A model generated the notes under the pieces. That model saw nothing but the letters and a program-made list of their open reading frames with translations. It was not told where the DNA came from and made no database searches. From Mytilisepta virgata (Eukaryota; Mollusca; Bivalvia; Mytilida; Mytilidae), in assembly GCA_028015205.1 (NCBI GenBank), contig CM051508.1, positions 13,348,001 to 13,412,000 of the forward strand: DNA of 64,000 nucleotides. Direction: 5' to 3'. The stretch's first letter is position 1; the number at the start of each line of letters is the position of its first letter. A program made the position numbers and the translations under genes. Positions 2,545-59,045 of this stretch are shown here, piece after piece.

Positions 2545-5500
2545 CACAGGTAAAACCATGACACAGGTGTTCGAACAGTCAAGGTAAAACCATGACACAG
2601 GTGTTTGAACAGTACAGGTAAAACCATGACACAGATGTGTTATCAGCACATATAAAACTATGGCACAGATGTGTTATCAGCACGGATAAAACTATGACAC
2701 AGATGTGTGAACAGTACAGGTAAAACCATGACACAGGTGTTTGAACAGTACAGGTAAAACCATGACACAGATGTGTTATCAGCACATATAAAACTATGGC
2801 ATAGATGTGTTATCAGCACGGATAAAACTATGACACAGATGTGTGAACAGTACAGGTAAAACCATGACACAGATGTGTTTGAACAGTACAGGTAAAACCA
2901 TGACACAGATGTGTTATCAGCACATATAAAACTATGGCACAGATGTGTTATCATCACGGATAAAACTATGACACAGATGTGTGAACAGTACAGGTAAAAC
3001 CATGACACAGGTGTTTGAACAGTACAGGTAAAACCATGACACAGATATGTTATCAGCACATATAAAACTATGACACAGATGTGTGAACAGTACAGTTAAA
3101 ACCATGACACAGGTGTTTGAACAGTACAGGTAAAACCATGACACAGATGTGTTATCAGCACATATAAAACTATGGCACAGATGTGTTATCAGCACGGATA
3201 AAACTATGACACAGATGTGTGAACAGTACAGGTAAAACCATGACACAGGTGTTTGAACAGTACAGGTAAAACCATGACACAGATGTGTTATCAGCACATA
3301 TAAAACTATGGCACAGATGTGTTATCAGCACGGATTAAACTATGACACAGATGTGTGAAAAGTACAGGTAAAACCATGACACAGGTGTTTGAACAGTACA
3401 GGTAAAACCATGACACAGATATGTTATCAGCACATATAAAACTATGGCACAGATGTGTTATCAGCACGAATAAAACTATGACACAGATGTGTGAACAGTA
3501 CAGGTAAAACTATGACACAGATGTGTGAACAGTACAGGTAAAACTATGACACAGATGTGTGAACAGTACAGGTAAAACCATGACACAGATGTGTGAACAG
3601 TACAGGTAAAACTATGACACAGATGTGTGAACATTACAGGTAAAACCATGACACAGATGTGTGAACAGTACAGGTAAAACTATGACACAGATGTGTGAAC
3701 AGTACAGGTAAAACCATGACACAGATGTGTGAACAGTACAGGTAAAACCATGATACAGATGTTTGAACAGTACAGGTAAAACCATGACACAGATGTGTGA
3801 ACAGTACAGGTAAAACCATGACACAGATGTGTTATCAGCACATATAAAACTATGGCACAGATGTGTTATCAGCACGGATAAAACTATGACACAGATGTGT
3901 GAACAGTACAGGTAAAACCATGACACAGGTGTTTGAACAGTACAGGTAAAACCATGACACAGATATGTTATCAGCACATATAAAACTATGGCACAGATGT
4001 GTTATCAGCACGGATAAAACTATGACACAGATGTGTGAACAGTACAGGTAAAACCATGACACAGGTGTTTGAACAGTACAGGTAAAACCATGACACAGAT
4101 GTGTTATCAGCACATATAAAACTATGGCACAGATGTGTTATCAGCACGGATAAAATTATGACACAGATGTGTGAACAGTACAGGTAAAACCATGACACAG
4201 GTGTTTGAACAGTACAGGTAAAACCATGACACAGATGTGTTATCAGCACATATAAAACTATGGCACAGATGTGTTATCAGCACGGATAAAACTATGACAT
4301 AGATGTGTGAACAGTACAGGTAAAACCATGACACAGGTGTTTGAACAGTACAGGTAAAACCATGACACAGATATGTTATCAGCACATATAAAACTATGGC
4401 ACAGATGTGTTATCAGCACGGATAAAACTATGACACAGATGTGTGAACAGTACAGGTAAAACTATGACACAGATGTGTGAACAGTACAGGTAAAACTATG
4501 ACACAGATGTGTGAACAGTACAGGTAAAACCATGACACAGATGTGTGAACAGTACAGGTAAAACTATGACACAGATGTGTGAACATTACAGGTAAAACCA
4601 TGACACAGATGTGTGAACAGTACAGGTAAAACTATGACACAGATGTGTGAACAGTACAGGTAAAACCATGACACAGATGTGTGAACAGTACAGGTAAAAC
4701 CATGACACAGATGTTTGAACAGTACAGGTAAAACCATGACACAGATGTGTGAACAGTACAGGTAAAACTATGACACAGATGTGTGAACAGTACAGGTAAA
4801 ACCATGACACAGATGTGTGAACAGTACAGGTAAAACTATGACACAGATGTGTGAACATTACAGATAAAACCATGACACAGATGTGTGAACAGTACAGGTA
4901 AAACTATGACACAGATGTGTGAACAGTACAGGTAAAACCATGACACAGATGTGTGAACAGTACCGGTAAAACCATGACACAGATGTGTGAACAGTACAGG
5001 TAAAACCATGACACAGGTGTTTGAACAGTACAGGTAAAACCATGACACACATGTGTTATCAGCACATATAAAACTATGGCACAGATGTGTTATCAGCACG
5101 GATAAAACTATGACACAGATGTGTGAACAGTACAGGTAAAACCATGACACAGGTGTTTGAACAGTACATGTAAAACCATGACACAGATGTGTTATCAGCA
5201 CATATAAAACTATGGCACAGATGTGTTATCAGCACGGATAAAACTATGACACAGATGTGTGAACAGTACAGGTAAAACCATGACACAGGTGTTTGAACAG
5301 TACAGGTAAAACCATGACACAGATATGTTATCAGCACATATAAAACTATGGCACAGATGTGTTATCAGCACGGATAAAACTATGACACAGATGTGTGAAC
5401 AGTACAGGTAAAACTATGACACAGATGTGTGAACAGTACAGGTAAAACCATGACATAGATGTGTGAACAGTACAGGTAAAACCATGACACAGATGTGTGA

Positions 5501-6235
5501 ACAGTACAGGTAAAACTATGACACAGATGTGTGAACATTACAGGTAAAACCATGACACAGATGTGTGAACAGTACAGGTAAAACTATGACACAGATGTGT
5601 GAACAGTACAGGTAAAACCATGACACAGATGTGTGAACAGTACAGGTAAAACCATGACACAGATGTTTGAACAGTACAGGTAAAACCATGACACAGATGT
5701 GTGAACAGTACAGGTAAAACTATGACACAGATGTGTGAACAGTACAGGTAAAACCATGACACAGATGTGTGAACAGTACAGGTAAAACTATGACACAGAT
5801 GTGTGAACATTACAGATAAAACCATGACACAGATGTGTGAACAGTACAGGTAAAACTATGACACAGATGTGTGAACAGTACAGGTAAAACCATGACACAG
5901 ATGTGTGAACAGTACCGGTAAAACCATGACACAGATGTGTGAACAGTACAGGTAAAACCATGACACAGATGTGTGAACAGTACAGGTAAAACTATCACAC
6001 AGATGTGTGAACAGTACAGGTAAAACTATCACACAGATGTGTGAACAGTACAGGTAAAACTATCACACAGATGTGTGAACAGTACAGGTAAAACTATCAC
6101 ACAGATGTGTGAACAGTACAGGTAAAACTATCACACAGATGTGTGACAGTACAGGTAAAGCCATGACACAGATGTGTTATCAACAAAAGTAAAACCACGA
6201 CACAGATGTGTGAACAATACCGTTAAAACTGTACC
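2545..6235. repeat. 34-bp satellite with 136-bp and 952-bp higher-order structure
   Basis: About 108 head-to-tail copies of a 34-bp unit (ACAGGTAAAACCATGACACA plus GATGTGTGAACAGT). Variants with ATCAGCACATATAAAAC and ATCAGCACGGATAAAAC alternate with the main type in four-unit blocks (136 bp; e.g. 3850, 3986, 4122). A larger 952-bp period (28 units) relates 3634, 4586 and 5538. Open frames across it are by-products of 34-bp periodicity, not genes. Each main-type unit carries CAGGTAAAA, a splice-donor-like string on the + strand. Confidence 0.95.
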
Positions 6236-21000: not shown

Positions 21001-24000
21001 ATCAATAATTATCTCCCTTACTTAGGGGAGATAATTTTATATTTTTTTCTTGGTTCTGTTAAGCTAATCAGACATTATTTATTATGTGACCTGAATAATT
21101 TGACAGAAATTAATTTGAGATTTTTGTTGCAATAATTTAAACTTGTGAAAATGGATTGCAATAATAAGTCTCTAATTTCTACCTTGTTTTCTATAAAGAA
21201 TTGCAATTCATTGCAGTTAATTTTTGTTATTTATAATAACTTCAAGTTAAGGACACAATACTGATTATCGTTTCTTGATATTTACTTTATAAACAGGATT
21301 TTCCAACAGAAAACATCTGGTTGTTGGTTTGACAAATTATTTGAGCGGCTGGTTAATCCAGTATTCTGTCATTTTTACAACTCATTTCTTGTTTTTTAAT
21401 TTATTATTTCAAGAACTCAATAATTTGTCACCAGTGAATATTAAATTTGAAAGATATTTTTGGCCGAAGACTTTTTTTCTCAAATGTATTTTCTACTTTA
21501 CCAAAGGAGTTCAGATATAAAAACCGTAATACAAACATGACTGTACTGTAATAAAGAAATGAATTGCTTGCCGGAATGGATATGGGAATCACCTTGAAGT
21601 TCTGTATACGGAAACTTAACTCATTGCCTACTTTTACTTGCCAACTCGACTAAACAACTTGTAGCATTTCTTTTGTCAACTCATATCGCTGACAACTTAC
21701 ACATTTTCCTAAATAAAAGGTTGCATTGCTCACATTTTGCTTACTGCACATTTATTTTAGGCCAACATGATGATGCTCGAATGAACATCTCTGTAGCAGT
21801 ATCTACTGCCAGGATGGGTGGGACAGTTGCTAATTATGTGGAGGTGCTAGACCTTCATAAAACAAAAGATGAACAAGGAAAGGAAGTAATATCAGGGGCT
21901 AGAGTTAAAGACAGAATAACAGGTTTGTGTAGAGGAAGTAGAATTCATTGGAATTTTCGTAAGGGAAATAATATACAGCATAATTAAAAATTGTGAATGG
22001 AATAGTGTTATTAAATGGGTATTTTCATATAAAGCCTGAATTATGTCTGAGTCAGTCGTATTGGGTCAAGGTCAACTGTATAGGCCCGAGGCAACGCTGA
22101 GGCCCTGTATAAATGCCAGCTTTCAAGAACTTCCTGTTACATTGAATGGCCCATTTATACTGTATTTTAAGTCATTTGTTAATAAATGGTAATATTATAC
22201 TTTATAATCATCCCTTAAAATTGGGAAAATACACTTGTATAGCAGCAAGATAAGACAGATATCTTAGATTGGCAAAAAGTTTTATGTCGACTTTTAAGGT
22301 CTGTACCTTTGTGTATTTTCCTATACCTGGCTTGGAATGGATGTGTATGGTGAGATGAAAATGTTTTAATTTTGACCCAAGAACACCATGTTTACATACT
22401 GATAATGTTGCAGTTGGGGGAAAGGCCTAGTTGTTTAACTACTAGTTATATTAGCCAGTTAATAACAAGTTCCTGAGTTCGAATCAAAATTCATGACTTA
22501 GAGTGTTCGATTGCATCTTATTTGACAAGGATTGTCACTTTTCCTGCAATAGGTTGTTCTTTCTCTCTGGGTTATCTAGTTTCTTCCACTGATGGAACCT
22601 GGTCATCGTGATGTAGCTAGATGTGCTGAAAGTGGCATAAAACCTCATTAAATCAGTGAATCAGTTGCAGTTTCCATGTGATATTGTGTGATACACTATG
22701 AAGTGAATATCAGATTGTAAAATAATAAGTCTTTCAAAGATTTATATGTTTAATTATTTAATTTTCAGACAAGGAATTCAATATAAAAGCTAAATGTGTG
22801 ATAAATGCCACTGGACCCTACACTGATCTGATCAGACTTATGGGAAAACATGGCGAGAGGAGAATATGCCAACCTAGCCAAGGTGTACATATAGTTTTAC
22901 CTGACTATTACAGGTAAGGCCAACTAAAATTAATTAGTAGATTTTCATCCAACTTTTTGAAAAAAATGGGGCGGGTGGGAGGATTTTATTTTTTATTTTT
23001 TATTTCATATGAAACTATTTTGTAAGGTGTTATTAATATGTAAACCTTATAAAATGGCTTATACCGCTTCCTACTCTAAGAATCACGAAAACCATGTGGA
23101 ATTGCTACAGGAAGTTAACAAAAAATGAAATTATTGACACGGATACTGGTAACGCAGATGAACAAAATCCGGAAATCGTAAATTTTAGAAAATAAAAAAA
23201 ATCGGGCGGCACGATTTTCGAGGGGGGGCAGGATGAAAATCTATCAATTAATTTTAATTGGCCTAAGTTTTACCTATTAACGCCATTGGGCCAGATATAT
23301 ATATATATTCCTAGAAAATGTGTAGTTCTTCTTCCACGTAATTCACCCCCTGTATTATATTCAGTAAATGTGGGTCAAGATGATATTTTGGGCAAATCAG
23401 TTGTATAAAGGGATCAACTGATCATACAACTAATGAGAAACCTGAGTGAGTTATCTTTTCCTAAACAATGTAGGTAAGGGAGATAATTAAATGCTCTCCC
23501 TTTTGTCCTGAGGCTAAAAGGGAGACAAATTTATTATCTCCCTTACCTACATTGGTTAGGAAAATATAACTCAGTCTGGTTCCTCATAGTGTGGATATAG
23601 AATTTCAGATAATAGTATACTATGAAATAAAACTACCAATCTATGGCAGCTAAAAAAAAGCCTTAAAATTGAAAAAAATGTCTGGAAATGTCCTGGAAAA
23701 ATCCCTGAATTTTTATGTTCTAAAAGGGTGAAAACTGCTGCAGGTATGACGAAATATCTTTGCAATTTCTATATGGAATTTGAAAAATTTGTTTATCTGG
23801 TGACATTTTGCATTCACAACAATGACATAAAACATTTACATGTAGATGAATAAGAAAAAAAGCCAGATAAAAAAACCATGTAAAACCATTTTAATTTTGT
23901 GAAATTAGTGTTTTATTGTGACATTATAGAGCATGTCAATTTCAGTCACAGTATTTGCAAAATAAATTTATTCAGTAATTTATTGCGATTCCTATGTGTT

Positions 24001-27000
24001 TTTTAGTCCAGACAGCATGGGATTGTTAGACCCTTCAACAAGTGATGGACGAGTGATCTTTTTCCTTCCCTGGCAAAGAGTTACACTTGCAGGTTTGAAA
24101 ATCTACTTAAATAATTACGTACAAATCTAATTTTCAAAATAGCATGTATATATACACATGAAATTCTACAGACTACATACATGTATCACCCCAAAACAAT
24201 CAAAAATACATTATTTGACAAATGTGATCAAGCATGGAAAAAAAAATTGATTAAATTTATTTTGACATATCTCTCTTGAAACTTGAATGACTTGAATAGC
24301 CATATTTCATGAAACTAGCAAATTATTAGCTGAAAATTTAGATTTATTTGAAGATTTATTTATGTTGGGAATCTCTTGAGCTAAGTCAAATATATTGCTC
24401 ACTCAGATTTGAACAATAATAATCATTAAAACCATTTCTGATGCGCCAAAATAAAAAAATTAATTTTTCATTAGTAATTGCCTTTAAAATCAGGGAAAAA
24501 AATTAACTCTTAAAATATAATGTTAAAATTAATATGCTGTTGGCGTGTCCAATGATGCGAGCACAGAAATAGCCCTTTCCAGAAACTCATTTCTGGTATC
24601 ACGATTATGCCTCTAAAATTATAATTTGAAGCAAGTTATTTCCCTTACTTTACTTATTCCCTTTCCGGCGAACGAAATTTTTCTAGCCTAAGTATGTAGC
24701 ACAAATGAATTCACTTCGGATTGCATAATGGCTGCCCATATGTAGAAAATGCATATGCTCCTATAGTGCTCGCTGTACTCGCTATTTATATTGAAAATGG
24801 AATATGGTTGAAGTAACTGTCAGTGCAAAATTGTTTACAGCCATGTGTCAAAAATTAAAGCAAAACAACAGTAATATTATTGCTGTTCTTCAATTTAAGG
24901 TCAAAATGATACCTTCAACACCAACAAAAATTGTGTATCCCACTGCTGATTATTAAGAAAGTCCCTTGTCTTAGTTGAGTGAAAAATAAAACTTTAACCT
25001 GCAATGTCAATGAACAAATTACACACAATAACAGCTCACAGAAATCTAACAAATGTTGTCACAATTTGCATGATAATCTCAGCATGCATGTTGTAAGGCC
25101 ATTTATTTTTAATTAGTTGGTTTACGGATCCACCAACCCGATTTTGCCGATTTGAAGAAAAAAAATAAAATTGAAAACTTTGGTTTTTTATTACTGCTGA
25201 TCCTCTGAAATCAGCCATCCCAAAAATAAAAATAAATTAAAATCCTTTTTGCATCAAAATTTCATAAAAGATTATAATCAGGTTCGTAAAAAAATAGATT
25301 ATCCATCTGTAAAATACTTGTATTAACATGATCCAAAAATAAAATCTATTTGTAGTTGTTAGTTGATGTCAATTTCCGAAACAAGTTTTATGAAATGAAT
25401 TTGCTAATAGAATCCATGCGGCTTTTAAGTTCGTTTTGTATGAATATCTTGATTCCGTAATATATCGAATCCACTCATTTCCTAAATGAAAATGTATTTT
25501 GTCGTAGTTGACGAGTCGGATCCCTTGAAAAGGGAATGGCAGCAAGAGTCTTAAACTGATCATTTGCAATCTTTGTATATTTGGCAATATAACCAAGATT
25601 GTTCAAAATCAGTCTTTATTGTACATGATTGTCCCTCTTTTTTTTCTTCTTTTTTTTCTGACCGACCGACCCTATTTTTAAAAAAAAAATCCGTAAACCA
25701 ATTAATTAAAAATAAATGGCCTAAACAAGACAAATGTAGAAAGAATCACAGAGCACATCAAGATTCATGTGAGATTGGACAGGACCTGTTATAGAAGAAG
25801 TCCTGAAACAACAGGCTGTCACTTGGTCTATAAGTTTCATTGAAGTATGAGAGATTGTAGTACACTTGCACATGTCCACTTTCATTTTGGGTCCTCAGTC
25901 AGATTATTTTTTTCACTTTTTCACAAATCATGATTCATGATGAAAATTTTCCTTATGCCAAGTAAAATGTCCCTCTTTAAAACTCTCCATCAAAAATAAA
26001 AAATTACTGGGTCTTATCTATTTTATCCTTCTGAACTTCTTATAGAAAATTTCTCAGTTATATGCAGTTTTAAATCAACACTACTTGTTCAGTTGTCATG
26101 AACTGGTTCAATTACTTGACTCAATGATATTTTTATCTATGGACTTCTTTTTGTCTAACTCAGTTCAAAGTTCATGATAGGCCTTGATTCATATAACTTG
26201 GCAGAAAAGAACTCCTTGAATATTTCCATTAACAGGTACTACAGATGTTGCATGTGATGTTACAGACCATCCATCTCCATCTGAAAAGGAGATCCAGTTC
26301 ATACTTTCAGAAGTCAGGAATTATCTACACAGTGATGTGGACGGTAAGTTCAGAAGTCAGGAATTATCTACACAGTGATGTAGACGGTAAGTTCATACTT
26401 ATAGAAGTCAGCAGTTATCTACACAGTGATGTAGACAGTAAATTCAGAAGTCAGGAATTATCTACACAGTGATGTAGACAGTAAGTTCAGAAGTCAGGAA
26501 TTATCTTCACAGTGATGTAGACAGTAAGTACATACTTACAGAAGTCGGAAATTATCTACACAGTGATGTAGACAGTAAGTTCAGAAGTCAGGAATTATCT
26601 ACACAGTGATGTAGACGGTATGTTCATACTTACAGAAGTCAGGAATTATCTACACAGTGATGTAGACTGTAGGTTTATACTTACAGAAGTCAGAAATTAT
26701 CTACACAGTGATGTAGACAGTAAGTTCATACTTACAGAAGTCAGCAATTATCTACACAGTGATGTAGACAGTAAGTTCAGAAGTCAGGAATTATCTACAC
26801 AGTGACGTAGACGGTATGTTCATACTTACAGAAGTCAGAAATTATCTACACAGTGATGTGGACAGTAAGTTCAGGAATTATCTACACAATGATGTAGACA
26901 GTAAGTTCAGAAGTCAGGAATTATCTACACAGTGATGTAGACAGTAAGCAGTGGTTGCGCTGGCATTCAAAAACTTGTCACCAAAAAAATCGGTAAAGCA

Positions 27001-30000
27001 TCATTTTTGTCGCCAGTTTCAAATTTGTTCGTCAAGTCACCCTCCCTCTTTTGGAAGCATTCTGCCATACGTGATTGTTCTTTTATTCATTACTATTTGA
27101 AATAACATGGCCTGAAAAGTATTTTTGATGAAATGTTTTAATGACAGCTAAATTTCATCTGAAATTACCTTTATTTTGATGGCAAGCCTAATAAAACATC
27201 GATTGTTCCACATGTGTTTGTTGATGTTAAACCGAAAGTGACATCAAAATCTTTGAAGATTGGAAATTTTATGATATAATGCTTTTAAACACCTTTTAAA
27301 GGTGTTAAAAAGCATGCATAGTTAATTTCACGACTAATAAAATTACTTAATTAAAATTTGGATAATATAAATACTATCTTAGTGTATAAATTGAATTGTC
27401 CTCAGCATGTGCAAGTTATTGATTGTGTTTGTTTACTGTTGACACACCTGCTGTGTTTATTGGCCTGATGTAAACTGATCAATTATCATAGATAATTATA
27501 TAAAACTTACAAATGATGTTTCTTAGTCACCATTTAAAAATATTTTCACATAAGTGCCAGATTTAAAAAAAAAAAGATCCAAAATTTCTGTCGCCAGAAA
27601 TATCCCAACTGTAAAATTCTGTTGCCAGATTGAACAAAAAAATTGCATTTGGCGACATTGCCGAAGCCCAGGAATTATCTACACAGTGATGTAGAAAGGA
27701 AGTTCAGAAGTCAGGAATTATGTACACAGTGATGTAGACGGTAAGTTTATACTTACAGAAGTCATGAATTATCTACACACTGATGTATACAGTAAGTTCA
27801 GAAGTCAGGAATTATCTACACAGTGATGTAGACGGTATGTTTATGCTTACAGACGTCAGGAATTATCTACACACTGTTGTATACAGTAAGTTCATACTTA
27901 CAGAAGTTAGGAATTATCTACACAGTGATGTATACAGTAAATTCATACTTACAGAAGTCAGCAATTATCTACACAGTGATGTAGACAGTAAGTTCAGAAG
28001 TCAGGAATTATCTACACAGTGACGTAGACGGTATGTTCATACTTACAGAAGTCAGCAATTATCTACACAGTGACGTAGACGGTATGTTCATACTTACAGA
28101 AGTCAGGAATTATCTACACAGTGATGTAGACAGTAAGTTCAGAAGTCAGGAATTATCTTCACAGTGATGTAGACAGTAAGTACATACTTACAGAAGTCAG
28201 AAATTATCTACACAGTGATGTAGACAGTAAGTTCAGAAGTCAGGAATTATCTACACAGTGATGTAGACGGTATGTTCATACTTACAGAAGTCAGGAATTA
28301 TCTACACAGTGATGTAGACTGTAAGTTCATACTTACAGAAGTCAGGAATTATCTACACAGTGATGTATACAGTAAATTCATACTTACAGAAGTCAGGAAT
28401 TATCTACACAGTGATGTAGACAGTAAGTTCAGAAGTCAGGAATTATCTACACAGTGATGTAGACTGTAAGGTCAGAAGTCAGGAATTATCTACACAGTGA
28501 TGTAGACAGTAAGTTCAGAAGTCAGGAATTATCTACACAGTGATGTAGACTGTAAGTTCAGAAGTCAGGAATTATCTACACAGTGATGTATACAGTAAAT
28601 TCATACTTACAGAAGTCAGGAATTATCTACACAGTGATGTAGACAGTAAGTTCAGAAGTCAGGAATTATCTACACAGTGATGTAGACTGTAAGTTCAGAA
28701 GTCAGGAATTATCTACACAGTGATGTATACAGTAAATTCATACTTACAGAAGTCAGGAATTATCTACACAGTGATGTAGACAGTAAGTTCAGAAGTCAGG
28801 AATTATCTACACAGTGATGTAGACTGTAAGTTCAGAAGTCAGGAATTATCTACACAGTGATGTAGACAGTAAGTTCAGAAGTCAGGAATTATCTACACAG
28901 TGATGTAGACAGTAAGTTCAAATGTCAGGAATTATCTACACATTGATGTAGACTGTAAGTTTATACACAAAAGATCACCAAACACAAACAACAGAGTCGG
29001 AATAGTCTCACATTTTAGACACTTAGTACCATAATAACCCTTATTATTCGACACCCTGATTTTTCGACACTTTTGAAAATTCAAGGAAAATTATTTTTTG
29101 ACTCTTATTAGGGACTCGGCAGGATTTTTACGGTAGAATAAATGGTCAATACCTTTGTGTTATTAATAATAACATTCTCAATCTCTTTTGATATTTGTAG
29201 TTTATTCTGCAAACTAGTTTGACATAGTTTGGTGTAGGCTGTTACAATTGAAAACCTACACACAAACTGTGTCAAAGAAATTTGTTTTCTGTATCCCACA
29301 ATGCATTGGGATTTAATATCATATTCCTCTGGGTAAATGGTCTCAGTTGCTTACTGGAATAACCTCTCTTTAGCCCTTAAGATTACAGGGAGATAATTAG
29401 ATTTATAACATGATAGATGGCTATATAAACAAATATTTCTCATTCTCATTCCTGAAAGTTTCCAGAATTTGATGGTTTTTGGATTTTGACAAGTTTAGTC
29501 CATATATATTCCTTTTCATAATACTGATTTAAACCAGATTTCTGGATTTTGACACTGTGTAAGTAAAAAAAAAAACTCATCAACCATAAATATTAAATAA
29601 AAACAAACAAAAAGCCAAGAAAATGTAGCTGGTTAAAGTATTGAACAGGCTGCTATTTTTGTGATTAATCAAAACTGCCAAGTTTCTCAAACTAAAGATT
29701 CTCTACATCAAACAGAAAGAACATTCCATAAGCATGAATAGCACACACACACAAAAAGATATGCTAGTGGGTGGTTAATTGTTTTGCCTATGCCTTGTGA
29801 TTGCAGAATGATTATTTTGTCACAGTGTTGAACAGGCTAGTATTTTTATGCCTGCACAAAACTGTGCCAAGTTGTTCAGACTGCATATTCTCTAGATAAA
29901 AAAGAATTAATAGTTGTGGACTTTTAAGAATGAAAAATTAAAGAAAAAGCAGGTAGTTTTTTTTTTTTTCAAAGTTCTGTCTTATTATTTATTTTAATTA

Positions 30001-33000
30001 ACTATATATTCTAAGGCAGTCCTGTTAAGATGCAAAAAATAATGGATATATAGCTTGGTAAGACTTGTAATTATTCCATTGGAGGGTTTGACAGCTGTTT
30101 TGTCATTTCAGAATGACTAAGTCGTCACAGTATTGAACAGGCTAGCATTTTTATGCCTGCTCAAAATTGTGCCAATTAAGTCAGCCTGCAAAGTCTTATG
30201 CTTCAGAAGATAAAGGTTGCAATGAAACTGTTCATGGAAACACTGGTATTTTTTCTAGACCATATATTTTTTCTTTTCAAAACAAAAGCAAAAATAGTAT
30301 AATTGGTTAGAGCTGGTACAAAATTTTACTTACTCAGACAAAAAAAAAAAACCAAAATTGTGTTAAAGTTTCAAATTATTTAAAATTTTTAAATGATATA
30401 TTCTGACAATGGAACAGTCTTCTAGTAGGTCCAACTTGTCCCCCTCACAACTCTGTAAATCCTGAGGATAAATTTTGTTTTAAAAGAAATTTATTTTTAA
30501 AAAAAACATTCCATTTTGTAGTTTTTCTGTTTTTGCAGTATTCCTGATGTGTCACAATGTTGAATAGGCTTTCAGTTTTATGCCTGCACAAAATCGTGCC
30601 AAGTCAGTTAAACTGCTAGTTCTATGTAGATCATAAAGACATCTACCTAAAAAAGAAATTGAAATACAAATATTATATTGCATTAGCATAATATGGTGCA
30701 CAGTGCTTGAATAAAGTAGTTAGTGCAGTTTGTTTGAATCAGAGAAATCATGAAATACGTTTGTATGACTTTGAAGAAATTCTGTAGAACATTCAGTAAA
30801 ATTCTTGGATTAGTTTATATAGCTTTCAAGAGATTCTGTAGGACATACATGGATGTGTCCATTGAAATTAATGGGTTAGTTTGTATAACTTCCAAGAAAT
30901 TGTTTAGGATATACCTGTCGAGGAAAACTGTTCTGTCAGTGCAGAATGACTAAGTTGCCACAGTATTGAACAGGCTAGTATTTTTATGCCTGCACAAAGG
31001 CGTGCCAATTTAGTCAGACTACGTATTCATGTGCAAATCATAATATATATAATAGTCGTTCATTGGGATATTTCACCAGATTTTTTTTTCAAATCAATGC
31101 AAAATGACTGTGTTGCCACAATGTTGAACAGGCCAGTAAATTTATGCCTGCACAAAATTGTGCCAAGTAAGTCATTTTACCAAGTCCTATGTAGAACATG
31201 GAGTAAGGTACATTGTAATTTACTTTTTTTTTTAAATGCAGTAAATATCTGGATAGATGTAGTGAAAAAAAGAAGAAGTATGAACTATTAAAGTATTTAC
31301 TTGATGGTGAATTACTGTCGAAGATTTTCACCTGTAGTTTACCACAATACAGCACAGACAGTAAATTTTAGTCCGTGCATATATTGTGCCAAACCATGTG
31401 TAAAAAATGTCGTCTGCAACAACAACTAACGCATGAAACAGTTACAATTATTCAGTGAGTTAAGAATAGTAGCAGCATACTACCACATGATATAAACTGA
31501 CAAAGATAGTCAAATAAACAGATATGCACATAAACAGATAAACAGATATGCACATAAACAGATAAACAGACAAGCACATAAACAGATAGATAGATAGATA
31601 TGCACATAAACAGATAAACAGATCTGCACATAAACAGATACACAGATATGCACATAAACAGATATGTACATAAACAGATAAACAGATATGCACAGATAAA
31701 CAGATATGCACTTAAACAGACAAATGCTCAGATAAACTGAGATATTCATGAATAAAGCGACAGAATAAACAGAAATATAGATATAAACCATTAGAATTAT
31801 TTGACATAAACGGGTATAAAGTTCCTCCATAAAAAGATGTTAAGATGAACAGATAGTCAAAGATACACGTTTATGTTAACAGGAACATACACATATATGT
31901 TAACAGAAAGATACACGTATATGTTAACAGAAAGATACACGTATATGTTAACAGAAAGATACACGTATATGTTAACAGAAAGATACACGTATATGCTAAC
32001 AGAAAGATACACGTATATGTTAACAGAAAGATACACATATATGTTAACAGAAAGATATACTTACATGTTAACAGATACACTTGCCAAATATAAAAAAAAC
32101 AGTTATTTGCAAAAATAAGAGATATTTACAGAAGAGAAATATATTCACATCTACAGAAATTTTTGATACCCTTGAATTTCACACAAATTAATTTTTCTCA
32201 CTTAAACCCTCAATGAAATTTGCATAAACAGAAATGTTCACAGTATATTGAAAATAAAATGTGGTGAATGCATTGTAAGAGCAAAATGACTATTTTGTCA
32301 CTGAGTTGAACAGGCTAGTATTTTTATGCCTGCACAAAACCGTGCCAATTTAGTCAGATTGCAAATTCGTCAGATTCTAAATAAAGAATAGTTATCTACT
32401 TTGAATATTAAAAATAAAATAAATGCAGGTACTAAGTTAAAAGTAGAAACAGTTGTTGCCTACGTAGACAGATATTTTTGCTGAAATAAACAAAATTATT
32501 ATATTTAGTTTCAATCATTTTGGGAACAATTGCATTAAAGTGTAAATATTGTCATGTTGTAAAATTTTCTCAGAACATGAAAAGCACACATTTGCCCAGA
32601 CGGCTGCAGTTGTATGCCTGCACAAAAATGTGCCAATCAAATTCTGGAAATCTCATCTTTTGGCCAATCATGTTACTGATCAGAATTTTTTGCATAGTAT
32701 AAATTGTAAAATTTAAGACCACACTAGTTCTGTCTTTTAAAGTAGATCTTGTGTGTATGCCTTTTAAATAAGATCCACTTACACATTCAAGAATTTCAAA
32801 ATTTACATTTGAGCACAAAAAATATTGGTTGACAAAAACTTCTGTGCATTTTCCAACAGTTTTAAATTGTAAATAATTATAATGGTAATTTTTGGTGTAA
32901 ATAAATTAACCATAGCAAAAACTATTTTAAAATATCAAGAATTAAAATAATTGACAAAATATAATATAATTAATTAACAATGGTGCACTATAACAAGAAA

Positions 33001-36000
33001 TAATAATTTATTAAATTAATTTTGAAAAATATTGACTTAACTCATATACATGTGATTGGATATATTAACAAAATGTTGAAAATATTTTATGTATAGTCTT
33101 TTCTGTACAAAATTTCCTTTATATTACAAAATCTTCTTATTTTCTTACCTTTCAGATTTTTTCCCAAATTGTTGTCCTCAAATTACTGTTTACCTGATTC
33201 AGGTAGTTTTTGATACTGACCTAAAGTAGCCAGGGAATTTATATAATATTGCAGGGTGTTTTTCACTGATCATGTCAGAATCACTCACAAGTCATCAAAA
33301 CTCTTTAATTATCAGAGTATACCCATTGGCAGTTAAGTCTTCGGGAGAAAAGGTATTACAAACACTGTGATTAATTTGTAAACAGTATTGTTTTTCTGTT
33401 AATTGCAGGTAATAGGTGTTTTAATTGGGAGTTTATGTCAAGTTTTTATCAGAGTATTTCACACTTAAGAAATATCGAATTTTATGCAGAGCAAAACTTG
33501 ATTTTAAATATATAATTGTATGTAATTATTTGAATAAAATACTAGAAAGAATGATGATTGAGGCTATTAAAGAAAAAAATAATTTTATTATTCCTCATAA
33601 TTTAAGAAAATGTATTTGCATATAAAAAGGAAAGAATTTATCTTGAAAAGTTTTTTTATACTACAAACTAAAAAAAATTGATAGAAAAGTTTCAGAAAAT
33701 TCAAGTCTTATTAAAATTGTTTAAAAAAATTAATATACAGAAATGTTCTATTATAGACAAATATTATTTCAAATTTGCTAAAAGAAAAAAAATACAGAAA
33801 ATGCAAATATGGAAATGTCGTTACTAAATGAATTATGATGATCTTGTTGTTTTATAAGATACAAAAATTTCCTAAATAAAAATTTGACAAATATAAGTTA
33901 TTGTTTCTTGTTTAAAAAAGTGCAAAAATCAATATTTCTTGACAAATATTTTAACCTATTGATGAGAACACAAATTCTATTAAATAAAAAGAAGCAAGCT
34001 AAGTAAAACAGTATAAGTACATTTAATAAGGTACATGTAGCTAGTTGCTTGAAAAGACGGTGAAAAAAATAAAATGAAAACCATTTTTAGTTCCCAATTT
34101 TTGAGTTAGTAAAGTCTTTAATATTGATTAAGGAATACATCATTTTAATGCTATTAGCTCAATATCTTTATTCTCATAACCATATACATAGGTACAGAGA
34201 CATTATACAAAACACATAACACATATACAATATATATATGTACAAAGATTATAAGAGAATTAAGGTAGGTATAGATAATTATAAATATATAAGTTAGCCG
34301 GGAGGACTCACTCTTTTGTTTATAATTCTAATAAATTTACACAATTTTATAAGTTTTTGTTTATTTCTAGTAGACATTATCTCTTTAAAATATAAAATAT
34401 TTGGCCTAACAGTCAGTCTGTTCTCGATGTATAGCTTTCTTTCAAAGGAAAAATGTTTACATGATAAAATATAATGAAACTCATCGCCAACATCAGAATT
34501 ACATAATTCGCATTTTCTGTTTTGGCGATCTATATTTTGCCATCTACCACTTTCAATAGGAAGTTTATGATTTACTGTTCTGAATTTAATAAATGTTAAA
34601 AAATCTCTCTCTTCAAGTATATAGTAAAAAGTTTATAATTTACAGCCTTCGAACAATTTTGGAGATCATCATGCCATTTCTGTTTGAATTGATCGCACAA
34701 ACTCAATTTCACTCTATTTTTGAGCCAGTTTTCACTAATAAAAAGTTGTGAATCCCATACATTTGTCAGTCCACATTCATCAAAAATACCTTTTACATAC
34801 ATTAACCATTTAAAATTAACGTTCTGCATATTCGACAAATAATACATACATCTGTACATAATATTACACAATTTTGATTCTTTGCCCATGACTAGTTTAC
34901 ACCAATAAGATACCATTCTCTGTTTTACATAAATACTGAGTGGGAAACGCCCTAATTCCCCATAGACCATACAATTCGGAGTGGATGATTTCAAATTTAA
35001 CAATAATTTACAAAATCTCAAATGCACCTTTTCTATTAGACTAAAATCGCTAAACCCCCATAATTCAGACCCGTACAGAAGAATCGGTATGACAACTTTA
35101 TCAAATAAATCTAACTGACATGAAACTGTAAGTCTATGATATTTCCCTCTTTTTAGAATTTCATACATAGCCCGTGTCCCTTTATCAGCCTGTGCTTTAA
35201 TAGATCTCTTAAAGTTTCCTGTCCTGGTTAGAAGAATACCCAAGTAATTAAATTCGCATACAATTTCGATATTTACCCCATCAAATGTAAATTGTAAATT
35301 ATTCGGCAGCCTTCCTGCCGAAAAGCATATTATCTTGGTTTTTCCCACATTAACCTTTAATTTCCAAATTATACAGTACTGCTGGAAGAGATCTAACTGA
35401 TTTTGAAGCCAATCAGGGGATTCAGACATTAAAACTGTATCGTCTGCATATAATAAAACAAATATTTTAAGATAGATACCCAAAGTGTTGTCAAGTTCAT
35501 CTGTAATAGTAGAGAGAGCTGTACTATTTTGACTATCCAGAAACTCTTCTAGATCATTTAGAAAAAGGGCAAAAAGAAAGGGTGACATATTTTCACCTTG
35601 CCGTACACCATTATCACAAGGGAAATAATCTGATTTACTATTATTATATACAATATTTGATTTAATATCTTTATACATATTTTGTACAACATTAAGCATT
35701 TTTCCATTTATGTTATTTAAAAGCAACTTATAGCTTAAAAGTTGATAATTAGTTTCAGTTATTAACAAAATATATATGTTTATACAATCAGTTTACTTTG
35801 TATACATAACAAGAAAAATAAATGGAAATGGTGAGCTGTCAAAAGGGGCATAAAACGACTAAAATGTATGAAATACACAAGTCGAACAAAACCAAATATA
35901 AAATCGTTAAAAAAACAAACTAAAAAGTTAAAAATACCCAATGTTTCGACCAATATGGTCTTTATCACACGCATGTAAAAAATAAAAATAAAAGGTGTTG

Positions 36001-39000
36001 ACTCTTTGAAACCCAGAGCAAGACTGAGTCCGTACATAAAATGTAAACAAAAACAAAAAATTATTTGACGTGGGTGTCGATCAGTAAACGTGCTTCATAG
36101 AAAATACATAAATGGCAAGGTAGATAGTAAAACTATATAGTAAAAATAAGTAAAATAATATATTTGATGTTATGATTTGGAAGACGTACATTTTATTTTC
36201 ATACATTTTAGTCGTTTTATGCCCCTTTTGACAGCTCACCATTTCCATTTATTTTTCTTGTTATCTATTGTCGCATGAGCTGTTTGCAACATACATAGTA
36301 CTTTGTATACAGGGGCACTTGACAAACATTACTAACTAGTGAAAATATATATTGGTAATTCACCTTGTGTTTATTAAATAGGAAGGCGTAGCCCGACGAT
36401 TTAATAAACTTGAGGTGAATTACCAAGTTATTCTATGCTCAACATTGTCCTTGAGTTATCATCAAATGTGAATTTTAGTTCACATCACCCATGATAGTAA
36501 TGGATTCCAGAGATTTAATTTAATATATCTGCAAACATTTGTGTGTAAAACGAATTTTAACAATGGCCTAACAGGTCTGTATCATTTTTCTGTCATCATT
36601 TTATTAGTCTATTGATAACAAATTTGTTGACAAAACTTAAAGGAAAATTAGTTAGTAATTCCACTATGAAAACATCTGTCAGTTTTCTGGCTGTGTTCGC
36701 TGTCGATTGGCTACAAGACATAATTCTACCTCATTAATATGAATATCATAGAATAAGTGCTATAATATCTGAATGGTGTTAATGATAATCTTTAAATTTT
36801 TTTTTTTTGTTTGTTTACTTTTAGTAAGAAGAGGTGATGTTTTATCAGCATGGTGTGGTATCAGACCATTAGTCATGGACCCAAACAAAAAGGATACTCA
36901 GTCCGTAGCTAGAAATCATATCATAGAAGTGTCTGAGAATAATCTTATTACCATAGCAGGTAGGCGCCGTATAGGTGGATTTATTTAGTGTGGTGTCAGT
37001 TTATCGCTTATTTTAGTGTTTGATTGAAATTTTCCAAAATGTATTGCTATTAATAATTTGTATTTCATAATGATCCTGCATAATATGTACATGTATTTAG
37101 CAGATTTTTGAAATTCGAAATTTGAAATTTTACGCAGGCCAAAATAACCTATTATATGGTACTACAAATTCAGCGACAGATAGAATCCAAACATACTAGG
37201 GTCTAAGATTATAAAAAAAAATCACTAAAGATCCAGAATATACACAATTTTAATAATGATTATAAGTATGTAAAGTAGTCTGTAAAGATTGTTTGTTTGT
37301 TTGTTTAGTTGGGGCTTTTATGCCCTTTTCAGCACATTTGGCTATTTCGCTGCAGCCAGTTTTATTGGTGGAGGAAGCCGGAGTACCCGGAGAGAACCAC
37401 GACCTTCGGTAGGAAAATTGGCAATCCTTGTCAATTAAGATCAGTCGAACACACCACGCAAGAGGTAAGATTCGAACTCCCTACATCAGCATTGACAGGC
37501 TAGTGATCATTAGTAGTCATGATGAACTACTCAGACTACTTGGCCAGCATTAAACAATAAGTAAGAAAAATACAGGTTCAGTCATAGCAGAGATTGTTCA
37601 TTGTGAGATTTTTCCAATTGAGATTATTGAATTTTGAAAATCTGACGTCTGACCTCAGTGTTAAACTTGACCTGTTTTTGCTTTGATATGTTTTGTCGGA
37701 TTAATCAAAATGCTGGTCTGTTAAACAAAATTTGCCTTAGAATTTTCTATTTTCAATTTCTGGTTTTATCAAATAGGTGGGAAATGGACAACATACAGAC
37801 ATATGGCTGAAGAAACTATTGACAAGGCAGTGGAAATTTGTGGTCTCCAACCAACGTCAAAATGTCGGACCAAAGGTCTCATGTTGGATGGAGCCCATGG
37901 ATGGACACCGACATTATTTATAAGACTGGTCCAAGATTTTGGACTGGAAAATGAGGTAAATAATACCGGTAGATGGTTTCAAATGATCTCATTGTAGTAT
38001 AACTATGGGTTTTATTGGTATACATATTTGAATATTTTGAAAGTTCTAATCAAAAATATTTTATGATAGATACATATCAAATGAATTGGACAACAGGCTA
38101 TGCAAGTCCTGTCCATGAAACAAGATGGATAAACAAAATATAAAAGAATATAAACAAATACAAAACCATTTAGCATTTAACCTAATGTAAGAATTTAATG
38201 AGCTTAGATCAATTATATAAGATATATTACAAATAGGTAAAACAATTTGTACCTTTGGACTGAATTAAAGTTCTATTTGAGCCAAACACTTGAGGAATAA
38301 GTATATAAGATCAGACATAAAAAAAAGCTGTTTTACAGGAAAACTCATTCAAAATATTAAATGCTGTAGTTATTGCATCCAAATATTTATTTGCAAAGTG
38401 GCACAATTCCTGAGGTATCTTGCAAAATGGCACAATTCCTGAGGTATCTTGCAAAGTGGCACAATTCCTGAGGTGTAAAGGGCAAAGGTTTCTGTCTCAG
38501 GTTAAACTTAAAATTTTTTTTATAGGTGGCCAAACATTTGGCAAGTACATATGGTGACAAGGCATTTAAAGTTGCCAAGTTGGCCACATTGACTGGAAAA
38601 CGATGGCCGGTCTCTGGCAAGAGATTACATGAAGAATTCCCATACATTGAGGCAGAAGTAAGGTTTGATTACACAATTATATAAAATGTTTTTAAATTAT
38701 GAATGGCCTTGGAGGTCATTGAACTCTCAGCACTGAAATCGTGAGTTTGAATTCAACTCATTGCAAAGGGTTGTTTGAATCTGACCAAAATTGACAAGGA
38801 TTGCTAGTTTTCCTGAAAAGGAGTACGGTACTCTGGCCTGCTACACCAAACTGAATTTCACAATTCAAAAGAATTTCCCTTAAAAGTGTAACATCCCTAA
38901 TAAACGATGAACAATTCTGTAATAATGAATTGCATGTCTTTTTCCCTGTAGGGTGTAACGTTGAGTATTAAATTATCTTTACATTGGAATTGTTGTGAAA

Positions 39001-48000: not shown

Positions 48001-51000
48001 ATGGTTCTTGAAAGATTGAAAAATGGCTTTCCCAGTGGTGTCCATGTGATAACTTATGAACTGTTCAACCAAAGCTTTTCAAATTTTAATATGTTGTTAC
48101 TGATGACAAAATGGAGGTCAAGTTCGATATTGACGATTTTCACTTTCACCGTTCAGGAGTTATGGTTCTTGAAAGATTGAAAAATGGCTTTCCCAGTGGT
48201 GTCCGTGTGATAACTTATGAACTGTTCAACCAAAGCTTTTCAAATTTTAATATGTTGTTACTGATGACAAAATGGAGGTCAAGTCCGATATTGACGATTT
48301 CCACTTTCACCGTTCCGATATTGACGATTTTCACTTTAACCGTTCAGGAGTTATGGTTCTGAAAAATTGAAAAAAGGCAGTTCAAGTCTCAAAAATTCCA
48401 ATATTTGTCACTTACTATAAATAGGAGGTCAAGATTGATTTTTGCCTTTCCATTTCTGAACCCTACAAAACCCTACAAAAATTCATTTATATTTCTTTAC
48501 TTCATCCTGTTTGGGAATCCAGATTTGCAAACATCATTTCCATGCAGGAAAATCCGGTTTGCTGTCATTCGACAGCCTCTTGTATTTTGTTGTTCCAATA
48601 CTTTAATGTCAGTGAAATGGGCATGGTTTATCATAGACAACTCACTTGAAAAAAGTGATTTTAAGTTAACGTGAATATTTTTGTATTTTTGTTTTCATAA
48701 ATATTATAGGATCAGGGATAATTGAGAAATGTATTTCAAATGCAATTGTAAATTAATATGGTGATTTTGTGATTGTATTTTTTATGTAATTCGATTATTT
48801 TGTTAACTTTGAATTTATGTTATAATTTAAGGAGCTTACAAAAGGATATTCAATCAAAACATTGTTCTTGTTGAATGTTTTATTTTTAATTCATACATAC
48901 ATATTCATAGGCTGATATGGTGGACTTATGGTTAAAATGTGAAGAAGTATATACCAGCAATCAACCAATCAAAATCCCAGTTTTTCATTGTTAAAATGCA
49001 TCATAATGTGTATTTTGTAGCCTTCTTGTGTAAGAGAATTATAAAACAAATGTGTACTCTGCCAAAAACTTTCTATTGCATATATGCCTATATATACTTA
49101 TCTAATGCACAGTATCAGGATACTTTGCTCAGTGTTAGAAGTCCTTTCTTCATGTCTAGATATCATTTTATAAAGAAATATTATACATTTATTTCCCTTG
49201 CATTAGTGGAATATGAAGATTTGTTCACCCGATTAAAGTCATGTTTCCCAAGGGCTTTTGCCCAAGGTAAACATGACTTTTCGAGGGTGTACAAATCTTC
49301 ATATTTCACTAATGCAAGGGAAATTAATGATTTATTCCACTATCCCTAGTGTAGTTTCTGAAAGGAAAAAAATTATATTTCAACAAGAACTTTTATGAAA
49401 ATTAAACAATCATGAAATAACATGAATAACACATGGAAATGTTTCACATTTTCTTTTACTTCGGCTGTTGATTTGTAACATTAGTGTAAAAAAAAATCAG
49501 GAGGATGACACAATGTTTTCGAGAAGGTGACACGATGATTTGTTACTTGTCACATGGGCTGCTCTAGACCAATCAAATGATCTCATTACTAGATTTAAAT
49601 TTATATAATAATATGCTTTCTGTTGAGGGATATAGTTGTTCCCAGTGTTGCCGATTAAAGACAAAAAACAATAATCGAGCTCAAAAATAAACTTCTGATT
49701 AATCAATGAAATATAACTTTCAATTCATTTTCCAGAAAAAGTATTAAACTTTCTTTAATAATTTATGTGTTTAAAAAAAATATTCTGACATGAGAAGGCA
49801 AGAAAAAGTTCAAAATATACTGTCCTGGTGTAAATGTAAATACAAAAGTAATACCGATGAGTATCTTGAGATTGTTAAAAAAAGATCAAAAAAAGATCTA
49901 TGTATATATATATATATATTGACTATAAATCATTAGATAATTTTTTTCATATAATTATCTGTTACGAAATTTCATCTGATTCCAATCACTAGTAGTTTCA
50001 TATCTTGAGTGTCACTAGATCATTATTCTTACGGAAATTTTAGCATCTATCATTAGTCATGGCTTTCATATGGATTCTGCCATCAAGTAGAACTTTCAAA
50101 GGGAATATTGTGAATAACTCGTGCATTGGCATCTACAGAAATAGTATCTTTCAGAAATCAAAATCGGTATTCATGATTTTTCTGTATAAAGGGTGGCATA
50201 GTAATGGATTTTTTTTTTGTGAGAGATGTCTCTATAATGAGCTGACAAACTCTTTAATTCATGATTTTTATAAAACAAAGCTGACTTAAAATTTCTTAAT
50301 ATGCATTTTTTTTTAAAAATAAATGAATGAAAATAACTCATTATCAAACCACAAAAATTTTGGTGTCAATAAATTATTCCCTTAGAATTAATTTAGAAAT
50401 ATAAAATCCCCATATTTTTGTTTTAAATTATATTGAAATACATGTACTAGCTTAAATGTGTGATACTGTTGAAATACTAGCTTAAGTGGGTGATACTGAT
50501 GCATCTCACGAATCAGCATCCTTAGAAGGGGGGGATGTTCTGTTCAATAAATTATCATAGTTATATTTATTATGAAAAGACAAGTCAGTGTTGAAACTAA
50601 AAGCTTTGTTGTTATTATTGATTTTCTTGTTCCATGTCAGTCCTTGATGTATGTTGTCATAGTTGATTGTCTCTTTTAAAAATTGAGAGTTGCCTCCCTT
50701 TATATGAGATTATTTAAAGGCAAAAATATTTTTCATTGTCCACTATTTTCTTTCCACAATATGCTGCATGTTTTGATAAAATGTGACCAAAATTCAATTT
50801 ACAGATTTTTCATTTAAACTAAATTGTCTGAATGTAAGGGAAGCAACTCTTTATAAGGAAATTTGTGTTGCATTATTCATTGTATCAAAAATGCATAAAT
50901 AGATTTTGATATTTGAAAAAAAAAAATTTGTATTGGTATATGTAAAGTCAATTTGCATGTTTTAGTTGATGTATTGTGCAAAAATAGGGAGAGAAATAAA

Positions 51001-58891: not shown

Positions 58892-59045
58892 TGAGGAACC
58901 AGAGTGAGTTATATTTTCATAACCAATGTAGGTAAGGGAGATAATAAATTTGTCTCCCTTTTAGCCTGAGGACAAAAGGGAGAGAATTTATTTATCTCCC
59001 TTACCTACATTGGTTAGGAAAAGATAACTCACTCTGGTTCCTCAT
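58892..59045. mobile_element. Fold-back MITE, second copy
   Basis: ATGAGGAACCAGAGTGAGTT ... AACTCACTCTGGTTCCTCAT, with GTAGGTAAGGGAGATAAT arms; same family as 23433-23587. Starts 8 bp after the candidate GPD2 poly(A) signal. Confidence 0.78.

What the first reader, a model, noticed from the sequence alone, without database searches (positions are those of the whole stretch)
29210..32646. Cluster of about ten related pri-miRNA-like hairpins in GPD2 intron 9
Seen directly: a ~82-nt unit recurs at 29210, 29622, 29803, 30109, 30535, 30941, 31099, 31319, 32281 and 32571, all on the GPD2 sense strand, separated by unrelated AT-rich sequence of variable length. The best copies have a 35-nt arm, a 12-nt loop and a 35-nt arm that align with no gaps. 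The 3' arm core TATGCCTGCACAAAA is the most constant part. Pairing is kept by two-sided changes: CACAGT/ACTGTG (hairpin 2) versus CACAAT/ATTGTG (6); GCAG/CTGC (2) versus GCAA/TTGC (8); AAAATGACT/AGTCATTTT (6); A-U for G-C next to the loop in 7. A ~35-bp stem with a loop over 10 nt is what Drosha/DGCR8 prefers. I do not recognise the arms as any conserved bilaterian or lophotrochozoan miRNA I know. Inference: a lineage-specific intronic miRNA family grown by tandem duplication.
Basis: partly seen in the sequence, partly recalled or inferred. Interest (0 to 1): 0.9.

Follow-up and report, generated by a model that had tools for sequence, protein, structure and literature searches.

The report
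Antisense microRNA cluster with miR-96 seed
Ten related copies of an ~82-letter unit, nine of them able to fold into hairpins, sit inside one intron of an animal's GPD2 gene and are predicted to be a microRNA cluster read from the strand opposite to the gene; eight of the ten copies carry the same seven-letter word (TTGGCAC) that is the targeting word of the old animal microRNA miR-96, so they would likely silence the same kinds of messages.

Summary
The repeat family is real: ten units, six gap-free over 82 nt (81% identity; flanks 51-54%), nine still folding into a long hairpin, one decayed. In 1.03 Gb the 5p word with two mismatches or fewer was found only in this cluster, so a MITE is unlikely. 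The most constant block is GTGCCAA (8 of 10 copies), not TATGCCTGCACAAAA (5 of 10 exact). On the minus strand, antisense to GPD2, it reads TTGGCAC at positions 2-8 of a 5p arm that starts about 13 nt (10-18) above the hairpin base, with a 12-16 nt loop: near-canonical Drosha geometry. In the six close copies all seven seed columns are invariant against 1 of the next 4; minus folds beat plus by z-score in 8 of 9 copies; pairing survives two-sided changes. TTGGCAC is the seed of molluscan miR-96a, whose canonical genes lie elsewhere in this genome; outside the seed no clear homology was found. H1's orientation is undecided. No small-RNA reads were available, so transcription and processing are inferred. 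Verdict: likely a lineage-specific antisense microRNA cluster with a miR-96 seed, a new member of a known kind.

The parts
32568..32651 (-). Hairpin H10 (first in predicted transcription order); predicted 5p at 32616-32637, ATTGGCACATTTTTGTGCAGGC
   Evidence: z -5.64 on minus for 32568-32649, -1.20 on plus for the shorter 32572-32645; R1 E=0.00024 in 64 kb; 5p coordinates
32281..32362 (-). Hairpin H9; predicted 5p at 32328-32349
   Evidence: z -5.13 minus; core alignment A6
31325..31406 (-). Hairpin H8, diverged; predicted 5p at 31372-31393, TTTGGCACAATATATGCACGGA
   Evidence: -36.1 kcal/mol minus against -19.2 plus, z -8.38; R1 E=0.15; outside the seed not alignable to H3 (z -0.8)
31099..31180 (-). 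Hairpin H7; predicted 5p at 31146-31167
   Evidence: z -6.10 minus
30941..31022 (-). Hairpin H6; predicted 5p at 30988-31009
   Evidence: z -5.68 minus
30535..30616 (-). Hairpin H5; predicted 5p at 30582-30603 (15 paired bases in 5p, the fewest of the nine intact copies)
   Evidence: z -3.92 minus
30108..30189 (-). Hairpin H4; predicted 5p at 30155-30176
   Evidence: z -5.18 minus
29803..29884 (-). Hairpin H3; predicted 5p at 29850-29871, CTTGGCACAGTTTTGTGCAGGC
   Evidence: z -5.10 minus
29616..29695 (-). Copy H2, decayed: the stem is lost and the seed word has become TTGGCAG
   Evidence: z +1.32 minus, -0.72 plus; R1 E=0.017
29209..29285 (.). Hairpin H1, diverged, near-perfect stem; on minus the seed word would be TTGACAC (5p 29255-29276); orientation undecided
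   Evidence: z -6.72 minus, -6.84 plus; R1 (plus model) scores it 20.5 bits on minus and 19.0 on plus, R2 (minus model) 21.9 on plus and 16.8 on minus, i.e. slightly better against the orientation of the others
26344..36823 (+). GPD2 intron that holds the cluster (boundaries approximate)
   Evidence: tblastn of a recalled GPD2 segment: exon stretches 26184-26342 and 36803-36961; donor GTAAGT read at 26344

Best explanation
Ten related ~82-nt units in a GPD2 intron, nine of which fold into hairpins, are likely a microRNA cluster transcribed from the minus strand, antisense to GPD2, whose 5p arms would be the guides and would carry the miR-96 seed UUGGCAC in the eight copies that hold that word. 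Inferred working: a minus-strand primary transcript of about 3.4 kb would be cut by Drosha/DGCR8 some 13 nt above each hairpin base, Dicer would remove the 12-16 nt loop, and Argonaute would load 22-nt 5p guides of the form [C/A/U]UUGGCAC + AGUUUUGUGCAGGC-like tails. These would repress mRNAs with GUGCCAA sites, overlapping the target set of the genome's own canonical miR-96 genes. Shown here: the family, the structure with two-sided changes, the constant heptamer and its position, no second cluster found by pattern in the genome, and canonical miR-96-like hairpins elsewhere. Inferred: transcription, strand, processing, loading and targets.
For: Seed: TTGGCAC is the most conserved 7-mer window of the ten-copy alignment, 8 of 10. 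In the six close copies, which were not chosen by seed, 7 of 7 seed columns are invariant, against 1 of 4 for positions 9-12, 11 of 22 for the 3p arm and 10 of 24 for the lower stem. Over the eight copies that carry the word (H1 and H2 left out, so zero in the seed is partly by choice) the mean pairwise difference is 0.00 in the seed, 0.52 just before it, 0.45 just after. TTGGCAC occurs 8 times on the minus strand of the window, each time in these hairpins, and 0 times on the plus strand; about 3.3 expected per strand. Geometry: lower stem reaching 10-18 nt (13-14 in five of nine; the script stopped at 18), 15-20 paired bases in 5p, loop 12-16 nt. Strand: minus z -3.9 to -8.4, better than plus in 8 of 9; 25 G.U cells on minus against 13 on plus. 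Structure, eight copies: 84.3% of cells paired (shuffled 76.1%), 9 pairs with two-sided change (4.4), covariation 0.258 (0.130), 0 of 500 shuffles reach any of the five measures. Genome: at up to 2 mismatches the 5p word is found at 7 places in 1.03 Gb, all in the cluster. miR-96: bgl-miR-96a-5p cuuggcacuggcggaauaguca and bgl-miR-96b-5p auuuggcacuuguggaauaaucg (one passage of PMC7328434); canonical-like genes at C9:48671437, C9:48683330 and C12:51712798 fold with a similar 5p placement.
Against: No small-RNA or transcript data. H1 does not favour the minus strand (z and both models), and H3 favours it by z-score but not by raw energy (-29.1 minus, -29.9 plus). The wobble count is 12 to 8 in the six close copies and six of the 25 G.U cells are one column. 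Other parts are also constant in the six close copies: positions 17-22 of 5p 6 of 6, 3p positions 51-57 6 of 7. Covariation is weak in the six close copies; with eight, a register slid by one still shows 8 pairs with two-sided change against 9, though 31% instead of 84% of cells pair. Hairpins of this size are common in the window. H8 cannot be aligned to H3 outside the seed. 5p begins with C or A in seven of the eight seed copies rather than the usual U. H5 has 15 pairs in 5p. No antisense promoter was looked for. No other animal genome was held, so conservation between species is untested.
Confidence: 0.74

Rival explanations
1. One reading: a microRNA cluster on the GPD2 sense strand, processed from the intron, with the 3p arm TATGCCTGCACAAAA... 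as guide.
For: The plus strand also folds (z -1.2 to -6.8 in nine intact copies); intronic co-transcription needs no extra promoter; ATGCCTG is constant in 7 of 10 copies (window CAGGCAT on minus).
Against: Weaker folds in 8 of 9 by z-score; a 3p start at that block with 2-nt overhangs leaves a loop of only about 4 nt (my arithmetic on the register); the constancy of GTGCCAA, the best of all windows, stays without a reason.
Confidence: 0.13
2. Hairpin RNA or palindromic DNA of another kind (endo-siRNA source, protein-binding palindromes) held by selection but not microRNA.
For: No expression data; both strands fold; the arms are 35 nt long.
Against: Seven invariant bases at the microRNA seed position beside diverged neighbours; mismatched stems unlike long siRNA duplexes; DNA-binding palindromes would not need two-sided changes over 35 nt.
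Confidence: 0.1
3. Palindromic transposon (MITE) copies.
For: Repeated inverted-repeat units of similar length.
Against: 5p word at up to 2 mismatches at 7 places in 1.03 Gb, all here; 15-mer core exact at 7 places, 5 here, the other 2 without the hairpin; the repeat TTGGCACAGTTTTGTGAAGTG (8 places at 3 mismatches) lacks the hairpin in the 5 copies folded. Target-site duplications were not looked for, and no DNA-similarity search of the genome was answered.
Confidence: 0.03

Closest known systems
miR-96 / miR-263 / miR-183 family (molluscan miR-96a, miR-96b)
   Same: 5p guide with the word UUGGCAC near its 5' end on a stem of similar shape; bgl-miR-96a-5p and predicted H3-5p share their first eight bases, CUUGGCAC.
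   Different: Positions 9-22, loop and star arm differ; alignment outside the seed is not clearly above shuffles (24 comparisons, z -1.1 to 2.3; among the three canonical genes 3.8-13.4); model R2 reports none of the canonical hairpins at E<=10; the only Rfam mir-96 match is 18.1 bits, E=3.8, gathering 65, at H10 on minus.
Lineage-specific animal microRNA clusters grown by local duplication (recalled example: primate C19MC)
   Same: Many related hairpins in a few kb, flanks diverged, a decayed member beside intact ones.
   Different: Here one seed is held in eight copies and equals that of an old family to which no homology outside the seed was shown; orientation is antisense to the host gene.
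Rfam microRNA families in general
   Same: Precursor size and shape.
   Different: 0 matches at gathering score in the window. Below it, at E<=10 in the cluster, 10 matches, the best mir-4798 at H1 on plus (25.7 bits, gathering 75, E=0.044).

Membership tests
animal microRNA gene | single hairpin with >=16 paired bases in the guide arm | tested here: met
   15-20 paired bases in 5p in the nine intact copies; 8 of 9 have >=16, H5 has 15; decayed H2 has 8
animal microRNA gene | loop of at least 8 nt | tested here: met
   12-16 nt in nine intact copies
animal microRNA gene | lower stem of about 11-13 nt below the 5p start | tested here: inconclusive
   reach 13-14 nt in five of nine intact copies, 10 in H4, 17-18 in H1, H8 and H10, with 18 the limit of the script
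animal microRNA gene | seed more conserved than the rest | tested here: met
   7 of 7 columns invariant in the six close copies and 8 of 10 copies with the same word; among paralogues only, not between species
animal microRNA gene | 20-26 nt reads from both arms, fixed 5' ends, 2-nt overhangs | not testable with these tools
   no small-RNA reads held
miR-96 family | word UUGGCAC at positions 2-8 of 5p | tested here: met
   8 of 10 copies; positions 2-8 of bgl-miR-96a, 3-9 of bgl-miR-96b as listed; depends on the predicted strand and start
miR-96 family | homology outside the seed | tested here: not met
   z -1.1 to 2.3 in 24 comparisons; R2 reports no canonical hairpin; Rfam mir-96 18.1 bits against gathering 65
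MITE | many dispersed copies | tested here: not met
   pattern searches only:
MITE | target-site duplications | not tested
   not looked for

The most novel reading that the evidence does not exclude
A bivalve-lineage microRNA array has arrived independently at the miR-96 seed and multiplied it eight-fold on the strand opposite a metabolic gene, so that one antisense transcript feeds a burst of guides into the ancient miR-96 target network.
Probability: 0.35. Interest if true: 0.72.

Novelty: new member of a known kind. Interest (0 to 1): 0.52.

Why it matters
Seeds define microRNA targets. A new cluster with an old seed but no clear homology to the old family would be a testable case of seed convergence, and a local array of same-seed hairpins next to a decayed member would show birth, seed-holding and death of microRNA genes in one intron. 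It also shows that the strand of a hairpin family is better judged by seed constancy and wobble pairs than by the orientation of the host gene.

Tried and rejected
Sense-strand reading: weaker on fold z-scores, wobble count, loop geometry and seed. MITE: no dispersed copies found by pattern. Derivation from the repeat that shares 16 nt with H3-5p (TTGGCACAGTTTTGTGAAGTG, 8 places): the 5 of 8 copies that I fetched and folded have no such hairpin. Derivation from canonical miR-96: not supported outside the seed, not excluded. Extra members: with filters off over 15.7 kb model R1 also gave 36346-36432 (E=0.009) and weaker ones; the four stretches that I folded (36346, 23478, 27259, 25061) are other inverted repeats or AT-rich hairpins and lie outside the 8 places of the seed word; the rest were not folded. 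5p pattern in bacterial and archaeal contigs: 1 hit, in a Bacteroidetes bin (L020), without the hairpin, about what 20 fixed bases in 257 Gb give by chance; in viral contigs 0. H1 relatives: 8 places at 3 mismatches; 7 were folded and none is a similar hairpin. Print: of the 10-16 nt arm words tried, hits were 6 papers, 1 paper and 0 papers, none a mollusc study by title; UUGGCACA is in 41 papers, none of the 40 listed a mollusc study by title. A search for bivalve novel-miRNA clusters gave 3 papers, none on a mollusc by title. Supplements could not be read, so published miRNA tables may hold these arms.
Full report
What is there. With filters off over 22000-37700 further weak matches appear (36346-36432 at E=0.009; others at 0.07 and above); the four that I folded are other inverted repeats or AT-rich hairpins. 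The six close copies average 0.81 identity within the hairpin against 0.51 and 0.54 in 70-nt flanks, so the hairpin is what is kept. H3 and H9 still share 70% in one flank, a trace of duplication.

The locus. GPD2 exons lie on the plus strand: glycerol-3-phosphate dehydrogenase/oxidase or DAO/DAO_C models match four of the five exon stretches tested, some below the curated cut-offs, and tblastn with a recalled GPD2 segment places exon stretches at 26184-26342 and 36803-36961 on either side of the cluster. The window is G000:C1:13348001-13412000 of a 1.03 Gb genome. The species is not known.

The seed. On the minus strand the most constant 7-mer of the ten-copy alignment is TTGGCAC, in 8 of 10 copies; read on minus, H1 has TTGACAC and the decayed H2 TTGGCAG. 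In the six close copies, which were not chosen by this word, its seven columns are invariant, against 1 of 4 for the next four, 11 of 22 in the 3p arm, 8 of 14 in the loop and 10 of 24 in the lower stem; 17-22 of 5p (6 of 6) and 51-57 of the hairpin (6 of 7) are also constant. Over H3-H10 the mean pairwise difference is 0.00 in the seed (H1 and H2 left out), 0.45 for the next four bases, 0.20 for 13-22, 0.31 for the loop, 0.37 for the 3p arm and 0.46-0.52 for the lower stem. Its place fits: the 5p arm that would have it at positions 2-8 starts 13-14 nt above the base in five of nine intact copies (10-18 in all, 18 being the script's limit) and leaves a 12-16 nt loop. In the 64 kb window TTGGCAC occurs 8 times on the minus strand, each time in these hairpins, and never on the plus strand, with about 3.3 expected per strand. 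I read this as the mark of a microRNA seed.

Structure under change. For the eight seed-bearing copies on the minus strand (H1 and H2 left out), 84.3% of cells pair (shuffled 76.1%), 9 pairs show two-sided change (shuffled 4.4), covariation is 0.258 (shuffled 0.130); 0 of 500 shuffles reach any of the five measures. Slid registers pair 31-43% of cells with covariation up to 0.108, but the register slid by -1 also shows 8 pairs with two-sided change. With the six close copies alone, plus strand, support is weaker: 17, 38, 1, 487 and 36 of 500 shuffles reach the five measures. Related sequences can exceed shuffles without structure, as the tool warns.

Genome-wide. TTGGCACANTTTTGTGCAGGC occurs with two mismatches or fewer at 7 places, all in this cluster on the minus strand; 54 further places have 3 mismatches (reversed control 6 and 6 in all). 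Eight of these 54 are one repeat, TTGGCACAGTTTTGTGAAGTG; five were folded and lack the hairpin; the other 46 were not folded. H1's 5p has no other place under 3 mismatches. The tool notes that such counts can be lower bounds, no DNA-mode search was answered, and H8's word was never searched, so a more diverged paralogue elsewhere is not excluded.

Relation to miR-96. bgl-miR-96a-5p and bgl-miR-96b-5p carry UUGGCAC at positions 2-8 and 3-9 as listed (one passage of PMC7328434). This genome has two miR-96a-like genes about 12 kb apart (C9:48671437 and 48683330), one miR-96b (C12:51712798) and one miR-183/263a (C12:62626125), all folding as precursors. Rfam mir-263 matches the two C9 hairpins below its gathering score (28.7 and 30.5 bits against 51.3). 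The cluster is unlike the three miR-96 genes outside the seed: 24 comparisons give z -1.1 to 2.3, against 3.8-13.4 among those genes, and the cluster model R2 reports none of them at E<=10. Two of the 24 comparisons reach 2.2-2.3, which may be chance or a faint trace. So: it would work like a miR-96-seed microRNA, but it is not shown to be a member of the miR-96 family.

What is inferred. Transcription, strand, Drosha and Dicer cutting, 5p loading and targets. No reads were available. The Pinctada fucata study PMC6627748 (passages read) reports 42 novel miRNAs whose supplementary tables were not readable here, so some of these arms may already have been seen as reads.

Noticed. The same intron begins with a long minisatellite made from the 3' end of the preceding GPD2 exon together with its GTAAGT splice donor.

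Noticed in passing
26306-26948 and 27669-28961: Minisatellite whose unit is the 3' end of the preceding GPD2 exon plus its GTAAGT donor (about 14 units in the first block, 28 units of 43 nt in the second); it encodes repeated FILTEVRNYLHSDVD and would offer dozens of decoy 5' splice sites in the intron.
   Followed up: partly
31514-31724 and 31859-32075: Two tandem arrays (8/24-nt ATAAACAG type; 24-nt AAAGATACACGTATATGTTAACAG) between hairpins H8 and H9.
   Followed up: no
34596-35792: Reverse-transcriptase ORF on the minus strand (PF00078); best relative 67% identical over 93% of it, 765 proteins at E<=1e-30.
   Followed up: partly
23461-23559, 36347-36431, 49211-49304, 58921-59015: Long, strong inverted repeats (-37 to -60 kcal/mol on plus) outside the cluster, possibly MITEs.
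   Followed up: no
2658-5855: Satellite-like minus-strand ORFs repeating motifs such as CSHICVIVLPVLFTHL.
   Followed up: no
L029 and L030 (C9:48671437 and 48683330): The genome carries two miR-96a-like genes about 12 kb apart, with different 3' arms.
   Followed up: partly
L029:8684-8776: Rfam MIR2670 match below gathering (41.9 bits against 117), perhaps an unrelated inverted repeat.
   Followed up: no
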